A stretch of 64,000 nt of DNA, taken from positions 1-64,000 of the forward strand of contig JAAPAO010000110.1 in the NCBI GenBank assembly GCA_013115145.1. Direction: 5' to 3'. The translations under genes were made by a program, and so were the position numbers. The first letter of the stretch is position 1; each line of letters starts with the position of its first letter. Shown piece by piece: positions 395 through 63,264 of this stretch. The stretch is from Perkinsus chesapeaki (Eukaryota; Perkinsozoa; Perkinsida; Perkinsidae). A model generated the notes under the pieces. The model was not told the origin of the DNA and made no database searches. It was given only the letters and a program-made list of their open reading frames with translations.

Positions 395-3300
395 ATGAAA
401 GCCGCCACGCTTCGTTTAACAGTTTACATGTCTTTCGTGGATGATAATGCGGCAACCTATGAGAGTCTCGTGTCCGGTAACTCTGTTTTATTTTCGATTG
501 GACTATTGATTGCCTTTATTTCGGGGTACTCTTAGTCAACCTCAACAGAATCTTGTTAGGTGCTACCTCAGATACCTTGTGAACACCGGGAAGGTTAGAC
601 ATATATCAGAATCGACAGCGAGTGTTATAATTGGCTTTACGATCGGCATAGTAAGGATCACCGTCCCCTCCAGAGAGTCCCGAATATATACTAGAAGTCT
701 TTGTAAAATTTTGGAGTGCATCGCGGTGGCGAACTAACGCGATTCAAAAGCAATGTCGACCAAGCGAATCATGGATGGCTTTATCATCAAAAAATAACAC
801 ATGCTCCTCCTTCAGATAATGAGATTACTAGGGACAGGTGACCGGCAGGCGATGCTAAGCATTAGCGCTGAGCTGTTCTATTTTGTAAGCTGATATCTCC
901 TATGGAGCATTACCAGCTCGTACAGGCACTTTTACCACCTATAATATTCGAGGCTAGTTTCTCTCTTAACATGGAAATGTTCATGAATAATCTAACTTCT
1001 ATTCTAACATTTGCGTTCATCGGTAATAACAAGTACCGAACAGGACATACCAACCCAGTCACACAGGCACAACTATATCAGCCTACGTTACCTCTACTTT
1101 ACTATGGACCTTCTCAACGACCTGGCTAATAGGGCTCAAAAACACCGAAAGTCTGCAGGGCTACTGTATGGCATTCGGCGCCTCAATTTCAAGTACCGCC
1201 CAGCTGCACTCGGGCATTATCGTGTACCCCCAGGCACGGACCCAGTCGCAGTGTTGGCTCTCATGGGAGGCACGAAGTATCGTCCTAATAGGACTTTGCA
1301 TTCCCTAGTATTCGGTGAAAGCGTGCTTAATGACGCAGTGGCTATCGTGCTGTTTGTCAGCCATCAACGTGAGACCGCCTATTTGCCTATTTATGCATTC
1401 ATCTCTTTGTCCATCAGAAGCGTATTTTAGCGGCGCCGCTGACGGAGGAAAGTCGATGAATCCGCTCTTTCACTTCTTAATAGGTAAATATCGAAAGGTC
1501 CCCGGATCCATCCCTGGCTAGAACATTAATATTATCTTCGATCTAGTATGGTTGATATATATACCTATATTAATAAGTTGTACTGGATAGCCTCATCATC
1601 ATAATGTGATTCAGAATGATAATCATAACTTTTAAAACATCGATTGTTTCAACACACCCACCGCACACATGACTTATTTTCCGGGAAAATAAGTTCCAGT
1701 TAAGTTCCAGTTAAGTTTACTTATTTTCCATGAAGGAAAAATTTTCCCCGTCCCGTTAATCCATCGCCTCCTATCTCGCCTACTTGCCCCCAACTCTCAA
1801 CCTTTCAGTTACTCTTGGGTCGATAATATTCGGCGTAATGAGCGGTGCGTTGGTCAGTGCTACATACCGCAAATCGTAAGATTCATGAACTCTTATTGAT
1901 GACTATATTTCCCACAGGTCAGTATGGAAGTTCCCAAAATATGAAATAGGTGGCATGTTCCTCTCCATCTACATCACTTTCTCTCTATCAGAGCTACTCG
2001 GTCTCAGTGGCATTATGGCGATATTCTTCTTCGGATTGGTGAGTCCTACCATATTAGCGTTCGTTACTACTTTATTCCCCTACAGCTGTTGGTTAGAACA
2101 TTTTGACTGAACTCCCGGTAGCGTTTTCAAGTGTAGTCGATTTAGGCTTTAACGCCGACGGATTGCATGCAGCACCGCCTCGTCCCATATCAGATGCTCG
2201 CTCGGTACAATCTACACAACTTATCTCAACCCTCTCAAGTAGCCTCCAAGCTGGTGTTTAAGACCCTTGCATTCTTCTCTGAGAGTCTGGTAACATCTCC
2301 TGCTGTTGATATGCCTTTGAATGAACCCTTCTTAGGTGTTCCTCTATTTGGGTATTGTTGCGTGTATGTCCATTGGTGAGTATCGATGGAACGTTGGATT
2401 GATAGTATTCACTCTTGCATTGATAGTAAGTTTCTCGTTTGATAATAGTATCCTACATCCTGCTTAACATCATCATTCAGAAGGCTCTAGTAGGGTTATA
2501 CTATTACCAATGTATTGCTACTACTTAGTAGTATTATTAACCGCCAGAGGATAGGCAAAGTCTGCCGGCCTTCGTCACGCAATACTCAGTTTCCTTTCCT
2601 GGAAAAGAATGGTATTTCGAAATATCATATCATGGTTTGGTGAGCTGTAGTAGTACTAAAAGCTCTCTCGCCCCGAAGACCATACCATACTTCCGATAGA
2701 TCCACATCGCAGTAGCGTCATATTAATTAGGTATTCGCCAGAGCTTGTAATGTATACCCGTTGTCATGGTTATTAAACCATTTAACCCGGTACCAGCCCA
2801 TCACCATTAACACCCAGATCGTAAGTATCGTTCACCATAGTCCTCACTTACCATCTTCAATAGGTTCTTTGGTTGGCTGGTATACGTGGGGCGATAGCAT
2901 TCGTATTGATGTTGAGAATGCCAACACGACTTGGTGATGAAACCCGAGATGTGTTGGTCACGACAACGATATCGGTAAACTCTTTTCTTCCTCATCATCT
3001 AGTTGCCAGCCGGCCAATCCGCTCGTTATATTGTTTAACACTCTTCACTGACCATGCAGTCATCTGGTATCCGGCAAAATTCCGGAGGAGATGGGATATA
3101 AAATGTTTTCCTATTCCCGAAAGTTTATGGCTCCGAATTCACATTTGCCCTCGTCCCATCCAAGATGGTATTTGCGTTCAGATAATTGTTGTGACAACCC
3201 TCCTAGGTGGCCCACTCGTTGAGCATATAGCAGTTACACTTGGAGAGCTACGCCCAACACAGCCATCAGAAGACCGACTAAAGCAGAATCTGCATTCGGA

Positions 3301-3631
3301 TATGGTACGACAGTGACCTCAAGCATTAGACCATTACCAGCTTCAGGCGAGTGGCATTGGTCGAGCAGGATATTTGCCAACTGAGCTCAGTGAGAGGCTC
3401 AACGATGCCCTCGAATACGTTGATAGAAAATACATACAACAATACTTAGGCGGACCGCCACCACCACAGCACGGTGAGAATACAAGTCATCTCGCTGGTA
3501 TCATGTCGGGTGTTGGATCAGAGCCAACAGAGCGGTTGATTGAGGAGCCTTTGGATATCGGTATTGATACCTATTATCGAGATAATGATGCCAAACGATT
3601 GATGATTGCTCGATCAGTTGTCTTTGAGTAA
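395..3631 (+). CDS. Na+/H+ exchanger (NHE/SLC9, CPA1 family)
   Basis: This is a membrane cation/proton antiporter. I model 15 exons: 395-525, 572-650, 816-884, 917-1022, 1067-1192, 1234-1368, 1418-1483, 1809-1875, 1918-2038, 2194-2289, 2336-2425, 2731-2820, 2864-2974, 3182-3304 and 3347-3631. Together they give 1695 nt (564 aa), an exact multiple of three. Family landmarks appear in order: LLPPIIFEASFSL, STDPVAVLAL with the transport Asp, VFGESVLNDAVAIVLF, NVYPLSWLLN, and AGIRGAIAFVL with the conserved Arg. The tail is hydrophilic and proline-rich (GGPPPPQHGEN). ATG 395 is chosen because it is followed directly by a first membrane segment. Most introns are 32-50 nt. Intron 7 (1484-1808) is longer and holds a tRNA relic and a palindrome. 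The subtype (plasma-membrane or organellar) cannot be told. Confidence 0.93.
1484..1520 (+). repeat. decayed tRNA 3'-part at start of NHE intron 7
   Basis: Directly after the donor (GTAAATAT) comes CGAAAGGTCCCCGGATCC and then ATCCCTGGC. It matches the element in the SMS-like gene intron at 46905 (CGAAAGGTCCCTGGTTCG, then ATCCCCGGC) at most positions, so it looks like an older copy of the same tRNA-derived piece. The T-loop is mutated from TTCGATC to ATCCATC. Confidence 0.55.
1672..1694. repeat. palindrome in NHE intron 7
   Basis: Arms ACTTATTTTCC and GGAAAATAAGT (11 bp, perfect) flank one central base. A third copy of the arm lies at 1719-1729. Between them GTTCCAGTTAA is tandemly repeated. 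Confidence 0.7.
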
Positions 3632-3802
3632 TGATATTATTAATGTATGCCTTTCCAGTAATATCTATCGAGTTAGTATTCATCGGCATTCACTGGCAGC
3701 CCTAACTTGGACATCTTGGAGTGATTAATTTAATTATACCACATTTCCGTCAAATCATAGATCATTAACAACTCTACATAACAATACATGCTAATAATAC
3801 TA

Positions 3803-6800
3803 CTAAAACCGTCCAATACGTTGGCACTGTTTAATCGTTCGTGCTAAAACGTCACGTTCTTCAAATGAAAAGGAATCAAGTGGTGCTTGCAAAGACTCAT
3901 CATAGGTCTGCCTTATAATAGCGAAACCTGGATGAAGGGTCAATCCTGAGGAAGTATAATATATACATAACTTATAGTATGGAAATATCTGCCGGCCCAA
4001 AACCCTTCGACGAATCACCATGGAAAATACACACTTTAGCTCTCAGAAGTGGGAATTTGATGAAGGCTATCCTCTTATTAATGCATTCAAAAATTTTAGA
4101 GCAGTATCCACTCGAAACGCACTGTGTAGATAATAAGATACTTCACCAACCACGACGCCGAGACATCTCACCTGTAGTCCCGAATCCTCCATTCACACAA
4201 GTCGGGCAAGTAAAGCTAGTCGCATCTGGTGACACACCTGCACACTTCTGGTGATACCATTTATCACAAACGTCACAGGTGATCCAGGCATCAGTGTCGG
4301 TATAGAGGGTAGTAACGACGTTACAAATCTCACACATATCAGTATACACCTGCAACGAAAGATACGCACGAAACGGTCGAGGTCGAGGTCGAGTTCCCAC
4401 CGTGGAGAAGTGTCGGCAACACTCCACTATATAGAAGAAGCGCATCTGCAAGGTGTTTCGGATATATCCTTCAACCGGGGGTGCCAGGACAGGATTCTCG
4501 CAGGCTTGTGGCAGCAGAGGAGCGTTAGGCAGGCGGTCTGGGAACTCGAAGATGTCGGTACATCGCTGATTGTGGGTGGCCCAATATTCCTGATAAAAGG
4601 GATAAAGAGCAACAACACAATCGGTAGGGGGTAGTACCAAAGTCCGCCGGTCACCAACCCATGGTCGAGGCCTGGTCCGGTCAAGGCTCAAATTGTGGAC
4701 AAGACACTGAGCGCGAACACGCCAATCAAAGGCCGCTTCAATTATGGTGATGACTCGGTACTCTACGGAGACAGCCAAAGGCAAGCGATCAATCTTGATC
4801 AACGCCTCCTGAGGTGAGGTCCCAAGTTCGATTCGCGGCACGGGCATTTCTTACGAGTAAATCATCGATAGTAACCATCACCAACGGCTTTGTCTCAGCG
4901 CCCTCATCCTCATTGCCTTGCTGCCCCTCTGAGACTTCCGTACTGAGATGGAGCTCCCAGGGTTCGAACTCGCGCAGATCACTAGCCGATACTCGACCTG
5001 AACCAGAATCCCCGAAGCTATCTGGGAGTCGCCTACCTTCACCGCTTGGCGGACGGAGAACTCGAAGCTTCCTCAATATCGTTCTAACACTTCTCATCGT
5101 ACTTCCCACCACCTTCCTCAACTCCCCAATTTCTGGCACCTTCAACCTTAATCGTCTGCTCCATGCTAGAAGGGATATGCAATCAGGAACTGACGCAAAA
5201 TTTGACAATCGGATCTCCAGCGAGCAGCAAGCCACCTGTAGGCTTCGGACTTTGCAGCCTCGCCATCAGCGCACTTTTCTCCGCTCTGCGTTGGTCGGGC
5301 GTTAGAGTACTAAGTACCTGAACGGCAGCAATAACGTGCGCACGCGTGCAGCCATACCGACCCTCCGACGTTTTCTTATTTCCATTTCGACAGGCGGCTC
5401 CACTCTGGAGACTCTAGGAGCATCCCAGGGGGCCAAATCGAGTATTCTCATCGACAATGGTAAAGACTCCGACGGACCTTCCGTCGCCAGTAGCTCTAGA
5501 GCCTTGCTTTTCTTAGAGGGCTTCTTAGGAGGGTAATAAAGCGGTAGGGGGTAGGCATAGTCGGGCACACCGTCGATACCAGGCTGCAGCCGTCCTTGTA
5601 TCAGAGCATCACGGATCGCCAAGTCGATAACATTATCGATCGCTTGATCGATTTCAACATTTTCCTCCACACTATCGCTTGTTACCTTCAAACAGTGGTT
5701 CACCTGATAGCACACAGCGACCTTGATTTTAGAATTTCGCAAAGCGTCTCGGAAAGCAGTACCGATCCATCCGAAACACCACGCGGATATCCCCACTCAA
5801 CGCTACGAGACTCCTCCTCGAGTAGACTTGCTCCAGATTTCGACAACTGCAATCTATGCTCAATCATATGATTATAAGAAGATAGTGATTATTCAGTTGG
5901 TAAGGCGATGAAACAAAGTAATTTCGAGACTGTCCCTGCCGCCCTCCAAAACCGCCCCTCAAGTTGATGCTGTCATACCGCTCCGCTAATTTTCGTCTGC
6001 CACCAGCTCACCTGCAATTCAAGCACAGTTGCCTCCTCAACAGCTCGTTCTAGTTCAGACAGCAGGTGCCCATCACACGTAAAGGCAGCATGTCTGAGCT
6101 CCTCCGGGCATTCTCCAGGACCGTCAGCGAAGCTCTCCTCGGACTAAAACAATACCAACTCCGAGCGCCATCACTCCACCCCAACCTACCCCCGGCGATT
6201 TCAACATTCGTGACGGTGCGTCGACCGAATGGCAAATCTGCCTTGCTCTCTCGAGCGTGCAGTTGGAGTCGGTCAAGGCCTCAGAGAGCTTCGTGTTATC
6301 CGATCGTGCCCGCAGCTCGCGAGACAGCCACTTGTCCGCTCCAGTATAAACAAACAGCTTCTTAGAGGCCGCCAGCAAACTCTGTAGATTCGCTTCAACT
6401 GGATCAATCGGTGCACCTAACCAGTGGATCATTGAAATGACGCGGGTTCGATCCCCGGTCGCACCATTTTCGGCAGTTCCTATCGGTGTTGTTGCTGCTG
6501 CTGTGCCACCACCGCCCGTGATCCTTCTAGTGTAGCTATCCAGTATCGTTTCCATTGACTTCTTCCAATTCTCCTTGGCATCACTAATCTGTCTCGATAA
6601 TGTCCGCCATTCCTCCGCCGATTGAATGAGCTCTCGAGATTTAGTGAACTCCTCATTCTCCATCGACGCCGCCCGTATCACTTCTTCAGCACTTTGCAAT
6701 GACAACCTCCTAATAACAAAGCCGATATAATACAATCTATGTCTAAGACATATACTACACTGCTATTCTCTTTCAGTATAGCATAATAATGTTAATATCA

Positions 6801-9800
6801 CTGCGGAATTGAGAGCCCACAGGGTGACCCAGAAAATGCCATTTTTTTATTTTTGTAGTAAGATGAAAATAAAACTGGTCAATTTATTGAAGTTCAGAAG
6901 CTCTCGAGATCGGATTCAGAATAGTAATAGTGACCAGCCGCACTAAAGCCGATTTCTCCCGAGTTGTGAAGTTATCGTCGAATTATAGGGCCACCTGAGG
7001 CTCTCAATCACCATACCACCGACCACCGAGTGACTTCCCACTGTAACATTATCACATCAGACGAAACATTGAATCCTAGACTGTCCCCATAAAAAGTTAT
7101 TTGATTTACGTCAATAACAGATGCCTCCAAACGCTCCATCCCCACTCACTTTTTCCTAGACCGTCGGCTCTGATAGAACGACAGCCATTGGTCAGCCTCT
7201 CCAGCAGCTTTCAGGAAGCTCTCTTCGACCGCCACCTCCACATCAAAGCTGTCCAATCGTCCCATCAATTTCCGCAACGCTCCCAACGAAAACTCCGTGG
7301 CGGTTGACTCAGAAGATCCAGCAGGAGCAGCTGCTGCCTCCTCCTTCTTAACCAAAAGCTCGCTGACCTCCTGTTGCCATCCTTGGGCTGCCTCCTCAGC
7401 GGCAATCGCACCAGAGATGAACCCGACCTAAACGAGTGCACATCACTGCAGCGTCGTCGTCGCCGAGGGATATAAAGCCTTTAAGATGTATGCTTGGAAC
7501 AGCTTACCTGCATTAGGAAATCTCTCGTAACGAAATCCTTCAGGACCGGATCTTCATCAAGTTCTCGAACGTACTGTGATACCTGTTATATACAAATACA
7601 ACCGACAGATATTGATAGAGTGCCAGAAGGACTTGATCTAATTTCTTTCTAGTGCGTCACTCCTTCGACCAGGCAGACGGGTGCCCTACGTATCGGACAC
7701 CTATACTGTTGCAGGCCCATTGTGATGGGCGGCGGCGATGGTAGATATAATTAAACCAACAACGACCTCAAGATTAACGAATACAGTCGCGTAGAAGTGT
7801 TGTGAATACCATGAATGCTTTCCTATTTCTTCAAAGTAAATAATTCAGTAATTCAGCACCCTCTCTGCGAGTCCTGTTATCTTTGCTACATCTCCTGGAC
7901 ATATACTAGCAGGCAAGTAGTCTCGCAGTAACGTCCAGAGGAGCAGCAAACGGCAAATACTCCTACACCTTACTTCGCTCATTATGGGTTTATTAGTCCC
8001 CTCAATCCTATTCTCCTTTTCATCCCAATGAAACAGCTCTCGGGCACGCCGCTGCCATTCCAGCAAGGCGTTCACTAGGGCTCTCAATGAGCTGAGGGAC
8101 CAATAAATTCTCACGCGCCCCAAAATCATCGCTTCTTACCTTTCGAATGCAGTAACACGCGATTTGGAGGCATCGACCGCTCCCAGGAGCTCCAGCAGTT
8201 GACCGAAAAGCGATGGCTCGGCCTCCTCCTCGGCCTTCCTTTTTTTAGCGTCTTCCTTCTCATCCTTCTTCTCCTCGCTAACGTTCTCCTCTCCTTTCAC
8301 ACCGTCCTGCTCTATCGCCGCCACACGGCACTTCACCATGCGTTGAACAAGCCGCAAGGTCCTCCTTTCAAGCTCGGAATTCTCGGCAATTATACCATCA
8401 ACCTTGGTGATCAGCTCTGGCTCTCGTACCAGAGAACGATCAATGCGCTCAACAACTGCACTTAGTCGCTTCCACGACGCTATTTCAATAGGAACTTTTA
8501 CTCTGAGAGAAACGTCCATGCAAGGATTCGAACCCACGACCTATGCCTGCCTACCTAAGCATGTTACTGCTCGACGACTCCAGCTGTCCAAGGGCCGCAA
8601 TGAGATCCCACTCCCCAGCCCACGTCGATCTTCGCACTATATAGGGTGGGTAGTCCTCATCCAGGGAGGCACTCGCGGACTCCTCCCTCTCCTGGACAAC
8701 GTTGCCCTGCCCATCCCTAGAATTCTTTATATTCCACCTCTCCTGGCAAGTCGGTAACGATTCTATCAATAAGGTGCACGCCTGAGGCAGTAAGGTAGAT
8801 ATATGGAAATGGCTCAAAGTTTGGTCACAAGTTCCACATCAAAACCAATTTGTTGAGAAAATGTCGGTATGAGCTTTCTGTAGCAAACCATCGAGGATAT
8901 CAATTATTCTATTCACTACTTTTCTACGTTTTATCAGCTACTAATTACCAAATATATTAGTAAATCTATGAAGACCTATCCAATGCTTGAGAGTCCCAAC
9001 ACATCCAGAGTAACGAAAATCCAAAGACTTCAACATGTGACAAGTTACCTTTTCAATCTCCAACAGAGCTCTATCGAACTCGCTGGCCTGCTGTGGTATC
9101 GTCTGCGCCGAGGAGATATCGACCAAACGCGGAGAGTCGGAGCCCTCCTCGGCCCTCTGGAGTATCTTCAATCTGCTTGGATAGCTCTCACTGAGCTTTC
9201 TCAATACAGAGGAGTTCATAGGCATCTGAAATAAATAAATAAAAACGCCTGTGGGAATCGAACCCGGGTCGCCTCCATGATAAACTTACATTGCTAACCT
9301 CCTTACGTACATCCCACGCCCATACTTCTTCCCTCATAGCAGTAAGCAGATCCTCCAGCGGCTCCCTTGCCCTCGTTCCCGCAATACCAGTCCGAAGGTA
9401 GTCCATAAAAAAGAAGGACAAAGCTCTCAGCCCTCCGCTCGGCCTCGGGAACTGACAAAGGCAACTTGCACCATTCAAGCGTCGGGAAGGTCTCACCGTA
9501 GCCGCCTCGCTGTCCGTCAACTCCTTCACTCTGGACTCCCATTTATCCACTTCCCCACCTATCTGACGTATCTTTTCATATAGCAAATCATCCCTCAACC
9601 TCAGCTCCCCACCGCTAGCTCTGAGCTCCAGAAATATCTTACAGCTCGGAAGATTCTCCAGATTTTCCCGAATTTCTTTATCATAAAGAGCAACTTGCCA
9701 TCGCAATTCTTCCATAAGATTCTCGACAAATGCCGGTCCGCTCGTCGATCGATTTCCCCCTGCCTTCGGGCTCACCAAAGCCGGCCCCTGCTCATCAATC

Positions 9801-15090: not shown

Positions 15091-15149
15091 TATTATGTAT
15101 CACGCTTCAGCAAACAATTCAGAGGGAAGCCTCAATTTAATTTTCCCGC

Positions 15150-17151: not shown

Positions 17152-17251
17152 NNNNNNNNNNNNNNNNNNNNNNNNNNNNNNNNNNNNNNNNNNNNNNNNN
17201 NNNNNNNNNNNNNNNNNNNNNNNNNNNNNNNNNNNNNNNNNNNNNNNNNNN
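17152..17251. other. assembly gap (100 N)
   Basis: One hundred N bases, a conventional gap of unknown true size. The minisatellite begins immediately after it. Confidence 0.99.
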
Positions 17252-17490
17252 TAAATGATACACACCTATATACTGTAATAAAGCCTATATGATACACACC
17301 TATATACTGTAATAAAGCCTATATAATACACACCTATACACTGTAATAAAGCCTATATGATACACACCTATATACTGTAATAAAGCCTAAATGATACACA
17401 CCTATATACTGTAATAAAGCCTATATGATACACACCTATATACTGTAATAAAGCCTATATGATACACACCTATATACTGTAATAAACCCT
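17252..17490. repeat. 34-bp minisatellite, about 7 copies
   Basis: The unit begins ATGATACACACCTATATACT and continues GTAATAAAGCCTAT (34 bp). About seven near-identical copies run to 17490 with single-base variants. The array abuts the gap, so the real array is probably longer and was not assembled. Confidence 0.93.
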
Positions 17491-17835
17491 ATATTAAGAA
17501 CCCCTCGTATACATCTGTCTTCTAGACCCTATATTGAGGTGCGTTACTAAGTGTAAAGAATATCTCAAATCTTGAACAATCCCCCTATACCGATAGTTGG
17601 TTATAAGCACTGCAGATGACATTAAAACACAGTCGAACATAATGTTATAACATACCCACGAATTTGGGACTTTGATTCCTCCCATATTCCCAGTCGCTCT
17701 AGTAGCTCGCCTGCAATTAGCCTCTGTAAGGGAAAATCAAATATAAAAGTCGAGGCACTCCGAGGCACAAATCGCCCGCCTTAATCGGATCTATATATCC
17801 CATATAGAAGAACCCTTCCTTCCCTCCTTCCTATA

Positions 17836-22824: not shown

Positions 22825-23999
22825 TTACACTTTCCTGGCAGCCTCAGCCCAGTAGTCTGTATCCAATGGGGTTCCATGAGGAGTTGCCAAGGCACTTCCC
22901 TCATCCACGTTGTAGTTCCCAAGGGTCTGCTGCCCATGCGGTATAAACTCAGGAGCATCTTTGGAGAGCTTCCGAGTGGAGCGTGAACCTTCTGCCGACT
23001 TGGCGGAGCCTCTACGGCCCGACTGAAGCCCATTGATCATGACGTTCACTTGTAAGGCTTCTTTTGTATACCTTGCCGCCGCTGCGCTCTTCCACAGGAA
23101 CAACACTAACTTTCTTCTCTTCTTTTTTTTCAGTCGGTTTATCTTCCTTTTGTACAGCTTCTTCTTTCTCCTTCGGTGAGGAGGCTTCGGTGGCCTGTTG
23201 AGTTCCCGCAATCTTGCCTCTGAAATTCACACCAACGTCCGCGTTATAGTTGCACGCATGCACAAGACGACGCGTCAGTGCAGATTACGCTGCAATTAGA
23301 CGTTCGAGCGCCTTTGGGCCTCCGGGGAAGTGGCGGTACTTGGTAACTGAGAAAAGGAAGGTAGAGGAAAGGCCTAGAATGCAGAATAACAGCGGCGGGA
23401 TTCGAACCCGCGCCCTTTCGGACTAGCGCCTGAAGCTAGCGCCTTAGACCACTCGGCCAAACTGTCGCTGGAATTGTTGATCATATCTTACCCAGGACGT
23501 TGGTTGGAATGAACTTTCCACCTTTCAGAGATAGCTCGAAGGTTACTTCATCATCTGCTGTCGGATACCTGCCCACCAGTACCTCACGTCGCTGAACCTG
23601 AGCTCACCAGAACTCCTTTCCACCAGAATCTTTGAAGGAATCTTTTGTGATTTCAAGATCACCCTTAACCTCGTTTGAAGATACCATCCCTCGACCTCTC
23701 TTCACCCAATACCTATTCCGCCAGATAACAACTCGCCTATAATAAGGCAATCACCATTGAACCTTTCCACAATAGCGGTAATTCTCCCCACTAGAGGACT
23801 TCCCAGCGACCGAAGAGCTCGCGGTTGTGCCGGATACCGCTTGTGAGTCTTTCTTAACATCACCCTCGGCAGACTTTTCTTTAGTAGGAGAGTTCGCTGC
23901 TGTTGTCGGGGCCGTGTTCTCTCCTGCCTTTTTGGCCTTGCCACCGCCCCCGCTGCTCGGCTTGGTGGGAGGTTTATGAGTTTTACTAACAGTTGGCAT
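22825..23999 (-). CDS. Uncharacterised 269-aa Lys/Glu/Ser-rich protein
   Basis: Six exons (23763-23999, 23608-23699, 23492-23568, 23289-23346, 23072-23219, 22825-23022) total 810 nt and keep one frame through every junction. The N-terminus is Lys/Pro/Ser-rich (MPTVSKTHKPPTKPSS). A compact middle follows (KGDLEITKDSF, WYPTADDEVTFELSLKGGKF, VTKYRHFPGGPKALERLIAA). Then comes a Lys/Glu-rich stretch and a tail ending GTPLDTDYWAEAARKV. The middle may be a small folded domain; no family recognised. Intron 3 (23347-23491) carries a complete tRNA-Leu-like sequence in the same orientation. Confidence 0.75.
23387..23466 (-). tRNA. tRNA-Leu(CAG)-like gene inside an intron
   Basis: This is a class II tRNA on the minus strand: D-arm TTGGCCGAGTGGTCTAAGGC, anticodon arm CTAGC-TTCAGGC-GCTAG (anticodon CAG), a long variable arm (GTCCGAAAGGGC) and a perfect T-arm GCGGG-TTCGAAT-CCCGC. 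The 3' acceptor strand CGCTGTT pairs only partly with GACAGTT. An upstream CAGCG would pair better but with extra bases between, so the acceptor stem may be damaged. It sits in the 145-nt intron 23347-23491 of the 269-aa gene. It could be a functional intronic tRNA or a recent pseudogene. Confidence 0.8.
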
Positions 24000-41262: not shown

Positions 41263-41317
41263 CGTATGAGAAGGCAGCTTAGTCTGACCTCGCCGGGACC
41301 GGGAGGTCAATTGAATT

Positions 41318-41370
41318 GCCTAGTAAACTAGCCGTAGAGTTGACCCAATTGAACGGCTAGTTTACTAGGC
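41318..41370. repeat. 18-bp perfect inverted repeat between WDR82 and AK6
   Basis: Arms GCCTAGTAAACTAGCCGT (41318-41335) and ACGGCTAGTTTACTAGGC (41353-41370) flank a 17-nt loop. The loop and flank share CAATTGAA motifs. It starts 56 nt after the WDR82 stop. Could help 3'-end formation or be an inserted element. Confidence 0.88.
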
Positions 41371-41669
41371 TTATAGGGAACTGTGGGGAAAAGAGCAATA
41401 CAAAAAAATATTTCCCCTAAAGAGAATGCAGAACTCCTTTATTTCGCGTCGAGCAGTTCTCGGTTACGACTGGAATTCATTCTTAGTGTTTCGACTAGCG
41501 ATCGAAGCGATCCTCTTTCAGGTCACTCTGGGCTATTAACCATGGTCAGCCTAAACCCGATAACGTTTTCTGTAACCATTTCTTCTATAATCGTATTTTA
41601 ATATTACTTCGCTTTGAGTTTCCAGTCTCTCAGTAGCTTTGTCTCCAGCAGTGCACTGTGCCATTCTTC

Positions 41670-42580
41670 ATGCCGTATTCTGTCCTGGTAGCCGGCACCC
41701 CTGGTGTAGGCAAGTCGACGTTCTCGAGGGAACTTGCGGCGGCTATTGGAGACTGCCGCGTTATAGAGCTCGGCAAGACTAGTAATAAATACATTGAGCA
41801 CGCATGAAGCTAATATACGTTTTAGTTGCGGCTGAGCATTTGTATAGTGAGTGGGATGATGAGCATAATTGTAGCATATTTGATGAGGAGGCAGTTGAGC
41901 AGCATCTTGGGAATCTCGGAGTTTTCGGCAAGGAGAATGTCGTTGTGGATTTCCATTCACCCGACTTCCTGCCTTCAGAATGGTACTAACAGGATGGATT
42001 AGGGAGCAAGTGGTGACATATTACAGCACAGTTCGCAAGGTGTTGCTGACATCGTGGGCATATCGTGCTCTCCTATATATAGAGACTACTCGCGAGTTTG
42101 ATGTGAAATATGTTACTAATGAAAGAATGAATAACCGTCGTAGTCGCATTACTTCGGAACTTCGGTATGCCTTTATATTTTGCAAGTCGTTACTTGTAGC
42201 ATCGGGTCAGTTTTAATCCCGTATCACCGTTTAGTTTGGGAGTGTTGTTTCGGTTATGGTGTCAACTGTCAGGTTCGACGTGGTGGTAGTTTTGCGGTGT
42301 TCAACGGAGGCATTGTGGTCTCGATTGGAGCAACGCCATTACACCGAGGAGAAAATAAAGGAGAACGTGGAGTGTGAGATTTTCCAGACGGTAAGGTCCG
42401 GTTGGTTGAGGTGATTGGTTCCTATTCTAAGGACTCGAGTTCGATCCCTGCGTTCAGATTCTTGACGATTGTCGAGAGCACTTCGGGAATGAGAAGGTGT
42501 TGGAGCTGCAGAGCGTTTCTATCGACGACATAGCTAAGAATGTACAAAGCGTCCTGGCCAAGCTAGGCAAGGCACAATGA
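41670..42580 (+). CDS. AK6: adenylate kinase 6 / FAP7-like NTPase
   Basis: AK6/FAP7 is a nuclear P-loop NTPase that acts in 18S rRNA 3' maturation and 40S assembly. Four exons (41670-41781, 41826-41982, 42273-42390, 42458-42580) give 510 nt, 169 aa, the same size as known family members. Motifs: VAGTPGVGKSTFSREL (Walker A), LYSEWDDEHNCSIFDEEAV, VVVDFHSPDFLPSEWFDVVV, RLEQRHYTEEKIKENVECEI (lid region). The last intron (42391-42457) is a tRNA-derived sequence. The second intron, 290 nt, has nothing recognisable. Confidence 0.93.
42391..42457 (+). repeat. sense tRNA-derived intron of AK6, 67 nt
   Basis: This is a phase-0 intron joining EIFQT to ILDDCREHF. It reads GTAAGGTCCGGTTGGTTGAG (D-arm-like), then TTCCTATTCTAAGGACTC (anticodon-loop-like ATTCTAA, which would be a TCT anticodon) and GAGTTCGATCCCTGCGTTCAG (T-arm, then acceptor AG). 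More of the tRNA is kept than in the other copies; only the 5' acceptor strand is missing. The anticodon stem no longer pairs. Confidence 0.75.
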
Positions 42581-42711
42581 ACATTACCATCTATTACTGT
42601 TCCTTTGCTAAATACGTACCTTCATATGGGCCTTGAGTTGACCTAATTTGTATCTTGCATCCATGAACCTGAGATTCTCGGCAGTTTCTATTGTTCCCGT
42701 TTCGATATCTT

Positions 42712-45689: not shown

Positions 45690-47404
45690 ATGGCCTCATC
45701 ACCCCCGTACTATGATGGCCCTACTGCGGCAGAGTCGTCCAAGACGAAGTCTCTCTGGGGAAGATTCCTTCATCGCGTTAAAGTCTTTAACAAAGCTCGA
45801 ATGGATTACGTGCGTCTAGCATGGCCCACTGAATGGGCAGTCTTCAAGAAAGGTGCCTGGTAAGATATCTTAGCTTCATCCTTGCACTTTGAAGAATGCT
45901 CTATCAGGTGGGGTATCCTATTCTTTATTATAACCTTATTAATCCACAACTGGGTTCATAACTGCGTTTACATGTTGGCAGGCCAATACGGAGTGTAAAC
46001 CTAACCCTCCCCGATCCCATCGCCAGCCGTTTCCTCAGATACGGTCCGTATGGTCGCCCTGGCAACCCTGTAGTCGACCTTCTCTTCGAGCTCTTCGGTC
46101 CTGGTCCTGCCGAATGGAATGTAGGCCCTTGTCACATCACTATGCGTATCTTTGCTTTCAGCCTGCTCCTGGAGACATCATCCTATATTTCACCATCTTA
46201 ATGGGCGTCGGCTACGCCCTACGACCATTGCTCTTCCCTTTTCCATACAGTAAGCCATCCCTCAGCTCAAAGTGAACAATGCCTAAAACGATAAAATTTA
46301 ACATAAATGCATCACCAACTTATTTGTCATGAATTCCAGAAAGTCTAGATTCCTCACTATTGAAAAGTCGAAAACAAATTCGTCATATTGAAGAATCAAT
46401 TTTGGAAAAAGCTACGAAAGAAGCTTTCTGTAATCTCTGAACAGGGTTCATATGAACCCCTTGGGTCGCCCAAGTGTGATGATCAATAAAAACTCAACAG
46501 CAAATTTCAATCGCTTTGTCGCACTGCATCAATCCTGAGGTTTTGTCGAGTATATTGTATAGTTCCTCGGACTGGGAAGCTCTGAGGACGACTTGTCTGG
46601 GCCATTGTATCCTTTTTAGGGGCTATGAATATCTTATGGAGATGGGCAATGGTCGCGAGTTTGGCAACGTATGCCCGACTCGCTTCTTTCATATTCACGG
46701 TGCGTTACAGATCCACACAAGTGCGCACTATGAAGAATATCTTTTAGATTCTTCCTGGTCCCGCGGACCACTGTTCTGAGGCCAATTTCGATCCGCCTAC
46801 TACGGCGAGTGAAATTTTCGCTCGAATATTTGTATCCGGTGGATGCAGCGATCTAATATTCTCAGGACACATGCTGTACGTTATTACAGTGACATGCGCC
46901 TTATGTAAGTCTCTCTACCGAAAGGTCCCTGGTTCGATCCCCGGCAACGGCATCTTTTTCTCAGTTCGCTACGCTCAAAACTGGTTCATTAAGTATTTCG
47001 CACTCGTTCTTAACATACTACAAGGAATTCTCATCATCGCGTCACGGCGTCACAATACTGTCGACGTGGTAAGGCTTGACCATATCCTTTTGTCACTTCA
47101 TTTCTATCAGGTGGTTGCCGCTTATGCCGTGCCTTGCATTTGGTGCACCTTCGCCTACTTTGTAAGCTCGCATCACCACGTGGCATTTATCAAGTATTGC
47201 CAGGTACCCAACGACTTTGAGGTTGAAGTGCCACCAGAGATCACTGGCCAGGACACAGGCAACTCGGGGACCGATGCCGGAACGATGAGCGAATGCTCAG
47301 AGCCTATCACTGATCTCAATCCTAGTAGCCATACCCGTGCTAGTGGTTCTACAACTGTTACCGATATCGAACTTGGTCACCCGGTGGCCACTTCTACGGC
47401 GTAG
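45690..47404 (+). CDS. sphingomyelin-synthase-like (PAP2_C) protein, copy A
   Basis: This is a multi-pass membrane enzyme of the SMS/SMSr family, which transfers a phospho-head-group between lipids. Nine exons (45690-45859, 45908-45994, 46039-46120, 46162-46249, 46620-46699, 46748-46904, 46965-47068, 47111-47161, 47204-47404) sum to 1020 nt, 339 aa. Catalytic motifs: GGCSDLIFSGHM (family C-G-D-x3-S-G-H, here Ser for Gly) and RRHNTVDVVVAAYAVP (His...Asp, with Asn where the others have Tyr). TM helices are clear, e.g. GILFFIITLLIHNWVHN. The tail is acidic and Ser/Thr-rich. First of three tandem copies; head-group and donor cannot be deduced. Intron 6 is tRNA-derived. Confidence 0.85.
46444..46475. 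repeat. two adjacent palindromes in SMS-A intron 4
   Basis: GGGTTCATATGAACCC (16-bp perfect) is followed at once by CTTGGG-TCG-CCCAAG. The 370-nt intron also holds an open stretch upstream of them (QIRHIEESILEKATKEAFCN) that looks like decayed coding sequence. Confidence 0.7.
46905..46964 (+). repeat. sense tRNA 3'-part intron, SMS-A intron 6, 60 nt
   Basis: It reads GTAAGTCTCTCTACCGAAAG, then GTCCCTGGTTCGATCCCC, GGCAACGGCA and TCTTTTTCTCAG. T-stem CCTGG/CCCGG pairs in four of five places. The discriminator-like A is followed by the T run that ends in the acceptor. The splice is phase 1, joining TCAL to RYAQNWFIKY. The relic in NHE intron 7 belongs to the same family. Confidence 0.82.
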
Positions 47405-48963: not shown

Positions 48964-51181
48964 ATGGCAGCAGCTGGCAGCACCACTTTACGGTTATTTT
49001 TTAAAGGGAGATGGAAGTATATTAAAGAGGCATGGCCGGTTGAATTGGCAGTCCTCAAAAAGGGATGGTATGGCGGACTGTGGGGTACTTGTTGAAGACA
49101 ATTGTTCCTTCAGGCCTTACATGGTTGGTGGTTTAATATCACTTCTTATTCATAATTGGGTTCATAACATGGCTTACTATTACGCTGGAAAATACCATGT
49201 GTAAGTGGGAATGTGCTCAGGACGACTCGGGCAAACGACGAGGCACGTCAATTTTGGATGGACACTTATCGAGGCTACCCATCATCCATCTTTATTATTT
49301 ACCCTTTTTATCGTTCTCAACTGAACGTAGACTCAATTAGACTATCTCTCCCCGATAGGTACGGACCCTACAAAGGGCCCAACAATCCAATCCATGATTT
49401 TGGTTTCGAATGGTTCGGGACAGCTTTCGTCGGTTGGTCGGTAAGGTCCATTGTTACCCTACCTGTTCGATGTCTTGCTCCAGATGCCTCCTGGTGACAT
49501 CGTACTCTATATTACTCTTATTATCGGCATCACCTTTGCAGTCCGCCCCTTGTTCTTTGCCTTTCCAACACGTAAGCCCCATGGTTTGGATATTTAAATG
49601 CAGCGTCGAATAGGTACTATGAATATTTTATGGAGAGTATTAACTATGAGCATCTTCACTGTGACGGGCCGGTGTATCTCATTCATCTTCACAGTAGGCT
49701 TCAATCCGACCTTGTGGGAATCTTTCGGACGTTTTTCTTCTCAGTTGCTACCGAGCTCGGCCGAGCATTGTTCTGAAGAGGATTTTGATCCTCCCAAAAA
49801 TTGGGGGGCTATATTTACCCATTTGTCGGTGTCAGGAGGATGCAGTGACCTCATATATTCAGGGCATATGATGTACGCATTGCTCTGCACATGTGCTTTA
49901 TGTAATACCACCGGATGAGGGCGGCGGCGGAGGGGAAATATCCAATAGGAAATTCACAAACAGGAGGGCATGCTCTTTGGTGCTGGGGTTGTGGAAAGTG
50001 ATGTGGATAGGAGTAATATATATGTTCGATATAAGTTTTATTGCATTCAAGCATAATACTTTATTATTATAGTAAGAAAACCTTTCATATCATATTGGTT
50101 ATTGATAAGTATGATATAAAAAAGCTCTCTTATATATGCTTCAAGTTTGATAATAGTTGTATTACTATTTTCTCCAACCAAAAGCCGAGTCCGTCAAATC
50201 TGGCGTTGATGTGTTTTCCTGCATTTTCCTCAATAGCTCGTTCTGTGTCAGTTCGATATGCCCAGAATTGGTACATTAAAATAATATCGCTGTTATTGAA
50301 CATCCTTCAAGGCTTTGTAATTGTCGCCTCAAGAGCACATTACAGTGTCGATGTGGTAAGTAGTTCGAGGCCACTATCAATTTTGTGATCATTTCTTGTC
50401 AGATAGTAGCAGCTTACACCATACCAGCGTTCTGGTGCACATTTGCCTATTTCGTAAGTTGCACTGAGGGGGTCTGTAATTTCAGCGTTCGACGGTGGAG
50501 ACATGCGCTCTGGCGGAATAATATCGGAGCTGTCAAGAGAAATTACTTAAATTGATTGGGGGAATTTCGTGGAGGTCATATTGGTCGGGCATAATATGAA
50601 AAACATAGTCAAGCGTTTTCAGCGGACTTACATCTCGAAACACCTGCGTCACAGATTTAGTGAGTAAATACTTTTCTTATCGCGTGCGAAGTCGCTGTAC
50701 TTTGAGAAATTGATAGATTCTAGAAGAAGTTACATGTTCAAGAAGGATACACGGCGGCTTCTTTGGTTTACCTATTCCATGGGCGTACCTTTTATATTCG
50801 ATTTCTACTCACATTTAGTCGGCAGAATCTATCCTAGAAGTATCTACGAGTGAATATTTGGGAGTTTCAGCTTGGTAAATTGCGACAGTTCAGTTTGTCA
50901 AATATCTTTTGTTGAGCGCTCACCATTTTGTTGGGACGTCCCATTCCGTGCAATACTTGACCATTTTGGTATTCCCTATTTGTCAGGTCCCTGAGGATAT
51001 CGGTCCGAATACGGTACCGCTCCCAAAAACGTCGGGGGATTTAGGCGGAGCGCCAGCCGTCTTGTCCGATTCACCTGCTGAGAACGCGATTGATCTCGAG
51101 CTTGGACCTATTGGAGTCACCGCATCTTCATCGTCATCGGTTCTCCAGGATAGGGAACAAGAGGTCAACGGAAGAGCGTGA
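48964..51181 (+). CDS. sphingomyelin-synthase-like (PAP2_C) protein, copy B
   Basis: Nine exons at the same positions and phases as copy A (48964-49067, 49114-49200, 49359-49440, 49484-49571, 49614-49693, 49745-49901, 50252-50355, 50403-50453, 50987-51181), 948 nt, 315 aa. Catalytic residues are complete: GGCSDLIYSGHMMY and SRAHYSVDVIVAAYTIP. A Cys-rich luminal loop precedes (AEHCSEEDFDPPKNWG). The tail is acidic and Ser-rich, unlike A. Introns 6 (350 nt) and 8 (533 nt) are long where the paralogues have 39-60 nt. Intron 3 (49441-49483) has a weak T-loop-like CCTGTTCGATG. Confidence 0.87.
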
Positions 51182-52159: not shown

Positions 52160-53746
52160 ATGAAATCGTCTATACGTGCTAGAATCGACTACGTCAAAGA
52201 GATATGGCCGTTAGAATGGCTCGTGTTGAAAAAAGGAGCATGGTGAGATAACCGTATCATTGCAGTGGAATTGGCTTGCACGACATCGCGGCCGCTAGAG
52301 CACCCGTAAAACCTCTCTCAGCTGCTTGAGGCTCATCGGGTGTGTTTGGTCATATGAAAAAAGTTTTCCCTTTCCCGCGATGAGAGTCGTTATTTCTCGA
52401 ATCTCCAGACATCTCCCCTTCGTAAGGTGCTTTTCCGTAACAAACTGAAGTGTCCATACTATACAAGTCATGCTACACATTCTTTCTTTTCCTTCACGGC
52501 GATTCCGAGGTCCTTCTAGAGAGATATTTGTGAATAATAAAATGCAGTTGAGGAATGTATATTCTCCTGCTTCAGGTGGGGGATCCTACTGTTTGTCGTT
52601 ACATTGATCGTCCACAACTGGGTGCATAATATGGCTTATTACTACGCTGGAAAATATGAAGTGTAAGGAGTCTAGCGGAGCGAAGCTCTAAATTATTATT
52701 ACCTTGCAGTTACGGTCCATACAATGGTCCAAAGAATTCAATACACGACTTCTTCTTCGAATGGTTCGGGACAGGCCTTGTCGATACTGCTGTAGGTGGG
52801 CGCAGGTTCGATCCCTGCACACTGCATTTTTCCAGGTTGCCCCCGGTGATGTAACTAATTATTTCAGTCTACTATTCGGTATTTGCTACGTTCTTCGCCC
52901 TTTACTCTTTCCCTTTCCGCACAGTAATATTTAATATTGCTTCGCTCCGCTGTACTATTGTTCCTAGGGGCAATGAACATGCTTTGGCGGTGGGGCGTGG
53001 TCGCCAGTCTGGCCACCTATGCTCGATTGCTTACTTTCATGGTCACTGTAAGAATTTGCTGTTAGCTCGGAGTTTCACGCCTCATCTTTCAGCTACTTCC
53101 CGGTTCGGCACAGCACTGTTCCGAGGAAGAGTTCAATCCACCAGCAAACTGGGGTGTCATTCTAACCAGGCTCTTCACCTCGGGAGGCTGCAGTGATCTT
53201 ATTTTCTCTGGTCATATGATGTATACCATTATCGTCACTTGTGGAATATGTAATTAAAATGCCTCTACTGGGGTTTGAACCTGTGCCCTTTCAGGTCGCT
53301 ATAGCCGTAATGTTTACATTAAGGTTTTTCTTATCTTACTCACTATATTACAAGGCTTCCTTATCATAGCCTCACGCTCTCATTATAGCGTCGACGTCGT
53401 AAGTTGGTCTAACAACTATCCAAGAAGTATCTTTCCTCCTTAGGTTGTCGCTGCATACGCGGTGCCCTGCATGTGGATCGCCTTCGCGCATTACGTAAGT
53501 GTGATGTGCTGAATACTCTCACATACGTCTCAGGTCCCCAATGACTTCCGAGTCGAAGATTCGGAATCAATCTCCTCTCCTGACGAATCTGGTCGCGAGG
53601 AGGAGGAGGGTGATAGCGCCCTGCCGTCTCCAGGTTCAGTCAGCAATCGCCCACATAGTAAAATATCTTCCGAGAGCACCAGGACCTCTCCCGGAGGGCG
53701 TGACTTGGAGCTCGGCGAGTCCCCGCCGACCGGAGCTAGATCTTGA
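52160..53746 (+). CDS. sphingomyelin-synthase-like (PAP2_C) protein, copy C
   Basis: Nine exons again in register (52160-52242, 52576-52662, 52710-52791, 52836-52923, 52968-53047, 53093-53249, 53295-53398, 53444-53494, 53534-53746), 945 nt, 314 aa. Motifs: GGCSDLIFSGHMMY and SRSHYSVDVVVAAYAVP, both catalytic His and the Asp present. ATG 52160 (MKSSIRARIDYVKE) aligns best with the paralogues; an upstream Arg-rich open stretch might add exon sequence. Introns 3 and 6 are tRNA-derived. The very acidic tail (EEEEG) distinguishes it from A and B. Confidence 0.87.
52792..52835 (+). repeat. sense tRNA 3'-part intron, SMS-C intron 3, 44 nt
   Basis: It reads GTAGGTGGGCGCAGG, then TTCGATCCCTGCACACTGCA and TTTTTCCAG. 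The T-stem GCAGG/CCTGC pairs perfectly, the best of the set, so this may be a young copy. It is phase 0, between LVDTA and VAPGDV. The same intron in copies A and B (41 and 43 nt) lacks an intact T-arm. Confidence 0.82.
53250..53294 (-). repeat. antisense tRNA 3'-part intron, SMS-C intron 6, 45 nt
   Basis: The minus strand reads GAAAGGGCACAGG, then TTCAAACCCCAGTAGAGGCA followed by TTTTAATTAC. In the host direction the complement of that tail, GTAATTAAAA, is the donor, and CCCTTTCAG, the complement of the variable-arm side, is the acceptor. The intron position and phase are those of copy A intron 6, which carries a different tRNA piece in the opposite orientation. Confidence 0.8.
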
Positions 53747-60606: not shown

Positions 60607-60643
60607 GCTACTTATCCTTCTAGGATCCAAGGATGGTATCCTA

Positions 60644-60663
60644 GGTTGATCCTAGGATCAACC
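60644..60663. repeat. 20-bp perfect palindrome upstream of the 398-aa gene
   Basis: GGTTGATCCTAGGATCAACC lies 38 bp before the proposed start at 60606. Related CCTAGGATA and TAGGATCC bits flank it. Confidence 0.85.
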
Positions 60664-60738
60664 ATTACTGGCAGGCATCGATGACAGTGTCACTGTCACA
60701 TTTGGGGAGTATCCAATTTTAGGAAAGAATATTTAAAA

Positions 60739-61138: not shown

Positions 61139-61362
61139 GAAGCCGAAAAAAGTAACTACTACGCCGATGAAGACGGACCGTGCAGCCAGCAGCGTCCGCT
61201 TACCATTGTGGTATCAGTTCGATCTACAACACTGTGCTCGACTCCACTGTACCCCAAATTCATAGCTCATAAACTCTGATCGATTGAGCTCTTCTAAACA
61301 ATAGAAACGGTTTCTAGATTCATTTCGGAAAGGAGACAGCAGGTAATTGTGTCACTTAGGAA

Positions 61363-62182: not shown

Positions 62183-62420
62183 TACTTACGTTAGGAACAA
62201 AAACGTACTGATAATAAGGAGTTCCCGTAGCTTACTGCACGAGATGATCTCGAGATTATTTCAATTTGTATCATGAAGCTTTATAATACGGTTTTAAAAG
62301 TATTATTTATGCCATATTTTGGAGGAAACCTTTGAAAGTTTTTTTGAGTTTCACGAATCGAATGCATCCTGAGTAACACAACTCCCCGATCATCAACAGC
62401 CAAGACTACTGTTTTCATGC

Positions 62421-63264
62421 TCAATCGAACATGAGGCTGGTGTCTGCCCGGAACCTGTCTAGTTGACTGCGGCTGGCAACTAAGTTGGGCATTCTAGGGT
62501 TCTGTGCTACTGTATACCTGCAATAAAAGCCGCCCCTTAGAATCGAACGAAAGACATTTAATTGCGATCACGGCGCTCTCCCAGCTGAGCTAAAGTTACT
62601 ACGTCTGTTCGGGATGGTAATAATGCCCGCCGTATTCTCTATTCGATAAACTCCAGCGCCCCAACTGGCTGTAGGCCAGCATCGGATGAACGTCATTCGC
62701 CGTAGACCAGTGGCCGTATCTAAGGTCGAAGCATGCATCACTCGCATCCACTCAACGTAGCCTACTCGTTCCCTTCCCCATAGTGGTGCTTCGGATACCC
62801 TTGTTCTCGACCACCCAGGAGCTCTCCTGCGGCAGGGCCCGGGATGGTGAGCTCCCACCCTAAACTTCGCTCATGTCATTCAGTATGGGCCATGAGTAAT
62901 ACCTCCAATAGTCATCCGAGGCTTCCCTACAACCCGGGCTGCGTCTCGCCTCCTGGCTGAGCTGGCTATGCTTCCAGATCTTGATGAGGCCGGCATTGAG
63001 CTGGAGCGACTACGATTGGTTCGGCCTGAATAAGGACAAGAGTGCGAGAGAATTGATTGTTGTCCACTGCTGACGCATGCTTCATTGGGTAGAACGGGTA
63101 TCGAATAGAGGCAAACCGCCGGAAAAATAGAAAATATGCGTTGATTTCTTACCGCTGCTTGGACACTGATTGGCTAGTCTAGCAGAGGGGGTTGGTGATG
63201 GTGCAAAAGGGACAATTCTACGCTCATAGACCTCCGGCATGTGGCTTGCTGGTATCCTATGCAT
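62421..63264 (-). CDS. Uncharacterised 187-aa protein
   Basis: Five exons (63153-63264, 62903-63079, 62766-62826, 62603-62719, 62421-62517) total 564 nt with every phase consistent. N-terminus MHRIPASHMPEVYERRIVPF is followed by an Arg/Ser-rich stretch (RTNRSRSSSMPASSRSGS) likely to be phosphorylated. Then comes a Tyr/His/Gly-rich part (QGYPKHHYGEGNEYGHWSTA; LSNREYGGHYYHPEQT) and a tail ending FRADTSLMFD. No family recognised. It could be a cytoskeletal or pellicle-associated protein by composition, which is a guess. Intron 4 contains a whole tRNA-like sequence. Confidence 0.65.
62518..62602 (-). repeat. intron made of a complete tRNA-like sequence, 85 nt
   Basis: This is a phase-2 intron (joins HPEQ-T to YTVAQNPRMP). 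It begins GTAGTAACTTTAGCTCAGCT, continues GGGAGAGCGCC (a perfect D-arm GCTC/GAGC), then an anticodon region, TTTCGTTCGATTCTAAGG (T-arm) and GGCGGCTTTTATTGCAG. The donor GT is the first two bases of the tRNA-like 5' end, and the oligo-T tail makes the acceptor. Acceptor and anticodon stems are badly mispaired, so it is unlikely to work as a tRNA. Confidence 0.78.

What the first reader, a model, noticed from the sequence alone, without database searches (positions are those of the whole stretch)
1484..62602. A family of short introns built from tRNA 3' parts, in both orientations
Short GT-AG introns at 4809, 4954, 6417, 8503, 9226, 42391, 46905, 52792, 53250 and 62518, a decayed one at 1484, and the tRNA-Leu intron at 23347, contain a tRNA T-arm and usually the 3' acceptor strand. 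Hosts are seven unrelated genes. For the AK6, SMS-like, 187-aa and 269-aa genes the splices are fixed by exact frame closure. The form GGTTCGANYCC is expected well under once in 128 kb of single strands at equal base frequencies. By eye I count seven, five of them in 44-63-nt introns without a whole tRNA. I know of introners and of tRNA-derived SINEs, but not of spliceosomal introns made of tRNA 3' halves. Inference: tRNA or tRNA-fragment sequence is inserted as, or converted into, introns in this genome.
Basis: partly seen in the sequence, partly recalled or inferred. Interest (0 to 1): 0.96.

Follow-up and report, generated by a model that had tools for sequence, protein, structure and literature searches.

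The report
tRNA-like B-box elements in tiny introns
In this clam-parasite genome (almost certainly Perkinsus chesapeaki) many very short introns consist almost entirely of a sequence that looks like the back end of a tRNA gene, in either direction, perhaps kept as a protein-docking site on the DNA rather than as a working or freshly copied tRNA piece.

Summary
Eight of the ten named introns (4809, 6417, 8503, 9226, 42391, 46905, 52792, 53250) are spliced out in deposited P. chesapeaki proteins; five carry the tRNA-like stretch in sense, three in antisense. 4954 is inside an exon; 62518 and 1484 are unconfirmed. GGTTCGANYCC occurs 1735 times genome-wide against 148 for the reversed pattern; of 92 sampled sites 75 are not tRNA genes. 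These share a ~36-nt tRNA 3'-end signature and nothing outside it. Splice-signal modelling puts roughly 50-66% in tiny introns. Most are not plain tRNA copies: outer T-stem pairs are close to chance (144 of 285, against 51 of 51 in tRNA genes), A boxes are hardly dispersed, and near-identical pairs are rare. Three tandem paralogs share intron positions, yet one intron holds the element in sense in one copy and antisense in another, so these elements entered old introns rather than creating them. Best reading: tRNA-derived B-box (TFIIIC-type) DNA sites retained in introns. Neither protein binding nor RNA splicing was measured.

The parts
4809..4854 (-). 46-nt intron of PHD-finger gene FOL47_000575; element antisense to the gene (element on + strand, 4815-4850; core has 2 mismatches)
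   Evidence: Exact exon mapping of deposited protein P0137; PWM 23.1 bits
6417..6464 (-). 48-nt intron of the same gene; exact core, antisense (element on + strand)
   Evidence: P0137 lacks 48 nt here; exact core at 6445 +; my own gene finder had called it exon
8503..8554 (-). 52-nt intron of the same gene; exact core, sense
   Evidence: P0137; P. olseni ortholog gap-free at the junction
9226..9289 (-). 64-nt intron of the same gene; exact core, sense
   Evidence: P0137; P. olseni ortholog gap-free at the junction
42391..42457 (+). 67-nt intron of the AK6-like gene; sense, core AGTTCGATCCC; by eye resembles a degenerate whole tRNA
   Evidence: P0001 exons 42274-42393 and 42458 on
46905..46964 (+). 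60-nt intron 6 of SMS-like paralog c1; exact core, SENSE
   Evidence: P0124
52792..52835 (+). 44-nt intron 3 of SMS-like paralog c3; exact core, sense, all three outer T-stem pairs kept
   Evidence: (P0121)
53250..53294 (+). 45-nt intron 6 of SMS-like paralog c3; element ANTISENSE (core GGTTCAAACCC on - strand); same intron position as 46905-46964
   Evidence: (P0121)
49441..49483 (+). 43-nt intron 3 of paralog c2, same position as 52792, without an intact element
49902..50251 (+). 350-nt intron 6 of paralog c2, same position as 46905 and 53250, no exact core
23347..23491 (-). Gene-finder intron of 145 nt enclosing a whole tRNA-Leu(CAG) gene at 23387-23466
   Evidence: no protein evidence
62518..62602 (-). 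Putative 85-nt GT-AG intron with a relic of a whole tRNA (D-arm TAGCTCAGCTGGGAGAGC, decayed T-arm)
   Evidence: splicing not verified
4945..4980 (-).
1484..1529 (+). Weak, decayed match; intron not established
   Evidence: 16.6 bits

Best explanation
A dispersed class of ~36-nt elements with the register of a tRNA gene's 3' end (AAAGGTC variable loop, T-arm/B box GGTTCGANYCC, 7-nt acceptor spacing, discriminator A, T-run) sits in noncoding DNA; about half of the exact copies make up nearly the whole of a ~45-nt spliceosomal intron, in either orientation. I infer that the elements descend from 3' parts of tRNA genes that entered existing introns and intergenic DNA long ago, and that the B-box core is retained by selection acting on DNA, most likely as a TFIIIC-type docking site (like extra-TFIIIC sites), while the tRNA's RNA structure, 5' half and acceptor identity were mostly lost. 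In sense the T-run doubles as the 3' splice site's polypyrimidine tract; in antisense the complement of CGAAAGG gives CCTTTC before the AG. Shown: presence, excess, profile, absence from deposited proteins of eight introns, shared intron positions. Inferred: tRNA ancestry, selection, TFIIIC binding.
For: 1735 exact cores vs 148 reversed; 75 of 92 sampled are not tRNA genes. Conservation only from about -10 to +25 of the core (75 elements), also in copies with low splice score (24 of the 64 grouped). Register matches a tRNA gene: discriminator A and T-run at the right distance. Core sharp, structure lost: outer T-stem pairs 144 of 285 in 95 elements vs 132 +- 6.5 shuffled, tRNA genes 51 of 51. 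Excess with one mismatch ~957 against ~1587 exact (both include tRNA genes), where steady neutral decay would give at least as many (my reasoning). PWM scan of 294 kb: >=16 bits 35 (tRNA genes included) vs 1 control, but 6-12 bits 19 vs 20, i.e. no decayed tail seen. A-box TAGCTCAGNNGG only 167 vs 65. Splice-signal mixture: 50-66% of 70 in 34-80-nt introns at thresholds 6-10; local gene models put 11 of 70 in introns and 3 in exons against 33 and 163 of 600 random positions. Opposite orientations at the same old intron of paralogs.
Against: No binding, RNA-seq or cross-species DNA could be examined. The B-block TFIIIC domain gave only a sub-threshold hit (21.2 bits, cut-off 22). Retention of discriminator and T-run is not needed for a pure B-box site. 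The inference of selection leans on the ancestor having had a paired T-stem, and on samples with five palindromic twins among the 75. Copying is not excluded: loci picked because they share a 10-nt string include pairs alike over 26-37 nt (L119/L120 26 of 26, L116/L117 92% of 37, L118/L120 91% of 35), one element lies in a 335-bp repeat (L125/L126), L116 is 91-93% like tRNA-Leu genes over 29-32 nt, and nearest-neighbour identity is shifted up against column shuffles (peak 15 vs 13-14 of 23). Splice-site adjacency is moderate: GTAAG 162 vs 62 per other letter, TTTNCAG 69 vs 35, antisense CTTAC 96 vs 73. At splice thresholds 9-10 same-strand elements outnumber opposite-strand ones (0.23 vs 0.10, 0.13 vs 0.03). 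The coding-plus-splice test barely separated elements from random positions (30 of 70 vs 352 of 1000 at threshold 10; 15 of 70 vs 82 of 1000 at 16). About 8.5% of exact hits are expected to be background.
Confidence: 0.43

Rival explanations
1. Introner or mini-SINE: a mobile element built on a tRNA(-Thr-like) 3' half spread by retroposition or transposition and created or colonised introns; the B box is kept because copies need it to be transcribed and to move.
For: Constant 3' end with T-run. Subset with GTAA(G/T)CGAAAGGTC-like sequence at a fixed 12-nt gap, as in a tRNA-Thr-like anticodon arm, so that GTAA is the 5' splice site and the terminator the 3' splice site (gap 12: 18 of 87 GTAAG strings; 16 GTAAT strings among the 100 listed, counted by eye). 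Elements flush with intron ends in both orientations. A few pairs alike over 26-37 nt. P. marinus hosts transposons that target tRNA genes (PMC3706591).
Against: No near-identical pair in the samples: best non-core identity 17 of 23 among 70 and 18 of 23 among 89 elements (89 is only about 6% of the set). Of eight 63-72 strings seen twice among 164, five are tRNA genes, one is the same palindromic locus, two are not (tRNA identities by eye). Shared old intron positions in the paralogs. No conserved sequence beyond ~36 nt.
Confidence: 0.27
2. Neutral relics: whole tRNA genes or fragments inserted at random into noncoding DNA and now decaying.
For: Some copies resemble whole degenerate tRNAs by eye (42391, 62518, L053, L095, L100), others the tRNA-Leu 3' end (L116). 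One whole tRNA gene lies in a predicted intron at 23347.
Against: A boxes are hardly dispersed (167 vs 65; eight D-arm patterns in 294 kb at about control frequency). Core sharp although T-stem pairing is close to chance. Fewer one-mismatch than exact copies in excess and no decayed tail.
Confidence: 0.12
3. The motif was never tRNA-derived: a B-box-like DNA motif (for TFIIIC or another factor) arose repeatedly by selection in introns and spacers.
For: Few copy lineages, no structure, orientation-free, present at opposite orientation in one paralogous intron.
Against: The acceptor-length spacing, discriminator A, T-run and AAAGGTC variable loop are tRNA-gene features with no obvious role in B-box binding; L116 is 91-93% like tRNA-Leu genes over 29-32 nt.
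Confidence: 0.13

Closest known systems
Extra-TFIIIC (ETC) sites, e.g. C. elegans (PMC6950938; passages seen)
   Same: Dispersed tRNA-gene-like sites outside tRNA genes; over-represented in introns in C. elegans; 44.6% overlap repeats, nearly all putative tRNA pseudogenes (CeRep3).
   Different: C. elegans sites carry A and B boxes; the same paper contrasts them with yeast and human sites. Here B box only, few copies, and the site can make up almost the entire intron. No TFIIIC binding data here.
Introners: Gozashti et al. 2022 (PMC9860276; passages seen) and Amoebophrya (PMC7789003; passages seen)
   Same: Repeated sequence class coinciding with intron boundaries; Amoebophrya is a relative of dinoflagellates.
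   Different: Published introners are mostly DNA-transposon-like families, often with TSD/TIR; here copies mostly share only a motif, occur in both orientations, and at two sites sit in old intron positions. 'tRNA' does not occur in the main text of PMC9860276.
tRNA-derived SINEs (recalled)
   Same: tRNA-gene ancestry and internal Pol III promoter box.
   Different: SINEs keep A and B boxes in a 5' head and have many copies; here only a 3' part, no A box, few copies.
Dada transposons that target tRNA genes in P. marinus (PMC3706591; passages seen)
   Same: Same genus; mobile DNA tied to tRNA genes.
   Different: Dada inserts into tRNA genes and is kilobases long; I did not search for Dada sequence at these introns.

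Membership tests
Extra-TFIIIC (ETC) sites | B-box motif outside a tRNA gene | tested here: met
   75 of 92 sampled exact cores are not tRNA genes
Extra-TFIIIC (ETC) sites | Occupied by TFIIIC without RNA polymerase III | not testable with these tools
   No occupancy data; PF04182 hit sub-threshold
Introners | Multiple introns with similar sequence across most of their length | tested here: inconclusive
   No near-identical pair among 89 elements, but a few picked pairs are alike over 26-37 nt; most elements were not fetched
Introners | Insertion creates a new intron | tested here: not met
   Tested at two sites only: SMS introns 3 and 6 are at positions shared by all three paralogs
Introners | Target-site duplications or terminal inverted repeats | not tested
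   No empty-site sequences available
tRNA-derived SINE | 5' head with A and B boxes | tested here: not met
   No conservation upstream of -10; A box hardly dispersed
tRNA gene or recent tRNA copy | Paired T-stem | tested here: not met
   As a class: 144 of 285 outer pairs vs 132 shuffled; tRNA genes 51 of 51; 11 of 95 single elements do keep all three pairs
Spliceosomal intron | Removed between GT and AG in the mature mRNA | tested here: met
   Eight introns absent from deposited proteins, orthologs continuous at the four junctions checked; no RNA reads examined

The most novel reading that the evidence does not exclude
Several hundred tiny introns of Perkinsus (roughly 780 by extrapolation) have had their whole interior replaced by an orientation-independent B-box element while intron position and length stayed fixed, so that introns serve as the genome's main extra-TFIIIC docking sites: an intron class defined by DNA-level protein binding and not by the RNA.
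Probability: 0.3. Interest if true: 0.87.

Novelty: new variant of a known kind. Interest (0 to 1): 0.72.

Why it matters
Where intron sequence comes from, and whether intron interiors can be swapped while positions stay, are open questions. Here the same intron in two paralogs holds a tRNA-like element in opposite orientations, which makes intron turnover directly testable in sequenced relatives. If the B box binds TFIIIC, it would give a protist related to dinoflagellates, whose chromatin is unusual, a large set of architectural sites hidden in introns.

Tried and rejected
Rejected readings: (1) fresh tRNA insertions for most elements, because T-stem pairing is close to chance; (2) decaying whole tRNA genes as the general source, because A boxes are hardly dispersed; (3) split or trans-spliced tRNA halves, from (1), an inference; (4) an RNA-level splicing element, because both orientations are spliced out.

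Led nowhere or weak: gene-finder runs (one search failed; one search merged genes; with intron penalty -10.5 kept 1 of 24 hand introns). The model used (penalty -9) agrees with most introns of P0137 (by eye) but kept only 7 of 24 hand-built introns in its last round, so region classes are rough: of 38 hits of at least 12 bits 6 were tRNA genes, 9 short intron, 2 long intron, 9 exon, 12 intergenic; the hits at 6435, 52795 and 53256 are introns by protein evidence although called exon or intergenic. Searches have little power with 140-nt flanks. At thresholds 11 and 12 one search gives intron shares of 0.90 and 1.16 on very few elements; I disregard them. Spacing peaks of TTTNCAG are partly caused by the T-run itself. 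Leave-one-position-out frequencies had 15-28 background hits among 44-55 and were not used. The nearness of acceptor strands to real tRNAs was tested against only 11 tRNA strings and shows no clear excess. Rfam finds only the two whole tRNAs in the window at E up to 1. On re-checking I lowered the best explanation from 0.45 to 0.43 and raised the introner rival from 0.25 to 0.27, because near-identical pairs are rare rather than missing.
Full report
What and where. The window is contig C14:1-64000 of a 35.4-Mb, 884-contig assembly. Its proteins match Perkinsus chesapeaki (P0001 98%; P0121 100% over 314 aa), so I take it to be that species (inference).

The observation. I tested the named introns against deposited P. 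chesapeaki proteins. Eight of ten are spliced out: 4809, 6417, 8503 and 9226 in one PHD-finger gene (P0137), 42391 in an AK6-like gene (P0001), 46905, 52792 and 53250 in SMS-like genes (P0124 and P0121). Orthologs of P. olseni and P. marinus are continuous at 52792 and 53250, and P. olseni at 9226 and 8503. 4954 is in an exon; 62518 and 1484 are unconfirmed. How the deposited models were made is not known to me, so they are not proof of splicing by RNA. Five of the eight carry the element in sense, three in antisense.

Genome-wide excess. GGTTCGANYCC: 1735 exact sites vs 148 for the reversed pattern; up to one mismatch 6210 vs 3666. I looked at 92 of the first 100 sites listed in contig order (window, C1:1-230000, and 60 fetched loci in C2-C23); 17 are tRNA genes and 75 are not, 70 after merging palindromic twins. 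The half motif GGTTCGA alone is not enriched (58 vs 68 in 294 kb).

Anatomy. The 75 share, relative to the first core base, AAAGGTC-C-R from -10, the core (fixed by the search), YRG at tRNA positions 63-65, four nearly random positions 66-69, GGYA at 70-73 and a T-run; nothing clear is conserved before -10 or after +26. That is the register of a tRNA gene's 3' end with its terminator. The low-splice-score group (24 of the 64 elements put into three groups) shows a similar profile.

Mostly not tRNA copies. All 17 distinct tRNA sequences keep all three outer T-stem pairs; 95 elements (the 75 plus 20 from loci chosen for a 3' splice site) keep 144 of 285 against 132 +- 6.5 in shuffles (p 0.036), and 11 of the 95 keep all three. 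The A-box pattern TAGCTCAGNNGG is found 167 times vs 65; eight D-arm patterns in 294 kb outside tRNA genes occur at about control frequency (for example 2 vs 2, 11 vs 7, 19 vs 17, 16 vs 10), with two clear relics (window 62592, C1 220248). Near-identical pairs: best 17 of 23 non-core positions among 70 elements and 18 of 23 among 89, though the distribution is shifted upward. Against this, loci that I picked because they share a 10-nt string include L119/L120 (26 of 26 nt), L116/L117 (92% of 37), L118/L120 (91% of 35), and L116 resembles tRNA-Leu genes (91-93% over 29-32 nt). A PWM trained on 59 elements outside the window and C1 finds 35 hits of at least 16 bits (tRNA genes included) vs 1 control, but 19 vs 20 between 6 and 12 bits: strong elements or none.

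Intron share. A splice-signal-only mixture estimate gives 50-66% in 34-80-nt introns at thresholds 6 to 10 for 70 elements; same and opposite strand are similar at threshold 8 (0.24, 0.21), same strand prevails at 9 and 10. Predicted introns of up to 110 nt are about 11% of bases (33.6 of 294 kb). Local gene models: 11 of 70 elements in introns and 3 in exons, vs 33 and 163 of 600 random positions. Adjacent splice signals: GTAAG upstream 162 vs 186 for the three other letters (both include some tRNA-Thr genes); TTTNCAG 69 vs 105; antisense CTTAC 96 vs 220, the last only 1.3 times the mean. Among 87 listed GTAAG strings 58 have a gap of 5-14 nt to the core. With about 1414 non-tRNA exact sites (1735 x 75/92) this suggests some 780 introns, near 1% of all by my rough gene finder (786 introns predicted in 294 kb). 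The gene finder predicts 116 introns in the window and misses three of the eight confirmed ones, so the window is rich in them.

Old introns. Three tandem SMS-like paralogs (c1 45.7-47.4 kb, c2 49.0-51.2 kb, c3 52.2-53.8 kb) share their intron positions: eight modelled in c1 and c3, seven in c2 (its intron 5 was not modelled), with equal exon lengths around introns 3 and 6. At intron 6, c1 has a sense element, c3 an antisense one, c2 a 350-nt intron without an exact core; at intron 3 only c3 has an intact element. The deposited proteins pair by paralog across species (c1 72%, c2 88%, c3 69-82% within; 49-64% between; P. marinus has all three), so the triplication and its introns appear to predate the species split. 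The elements therefore entered, or replaced, the interior of old introns.

Mechanism. The sharp core amid lost structure, both orientations, and scarcity of copy lineages point to DNA-level constraint on a B box; TFIIIC is the known B-box binder (established knowledge). The tRNA-gene register, including discriminator and terminator, points to tRNA ancestry. Why such elements are frequent in tiny introns: the T-run, or in antisense the complement of CGAAAGG, is a ready polypyrimidine tract, so a ~36-nt element fits a ~45-nt intron without spoiling splicing (inference). A subset with GTAA at the tRNA-Thr anticodon position shows how a tRNA 3' half can be a ready-made intron.

Known or not. Full-text searches for introner + tRNA-derived + intron gain, Perkinsus + introner, Perkinsus + intron + tRNA gene, introns + derived from tRNA + intron gain, introner + transposable element + dinoflagellate, Perkinsus + SINE + genome + introns, extra TFIIIC + B-box + introns, TFIIIC/ETC terms, Perkinsus chesapeaki + genome + introns and a five-term mix listed no title or abstract start describing such introns; I saw those listings, and passages of five papers. 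The library holds open-licence papers only.

Noticed in passing
window 37270-45507: Deposited protein P0001 fuses WD40, AK6-like and NFX1-like reading frames into one model; probably an annotation fusion.
   Followed up: no
L032 (G000:C1 near 302700): A whole tRNA-Thr(AGT) gene is followed directly by TTTTTCAG and has GTAAG in its anticodon loop, so its 3' half reads as a ready-made intron (anticodon by eye).
   Followed up: partly
window 17218-17539 and 35138-35380: Tandem repeats with 34-nt and 27-nt units.
   Followed up: no
window 52676, 52941 and elsewhere: A short GCGGAGCGAAGC-type repeat recurs in small introns and spacers; by eye only.
   Followed up: no
L125 and L126 (G000:C34, C267): A 335-bp repeat, 97% identical, contains an exact element, so a few elements are carried by larger repeats.
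   Followed up: no
G000:C13:94788-94895: Sub-threshold B-block TFIIIC domain match, possible TFIIIC subunit exon.
   Followed up: no
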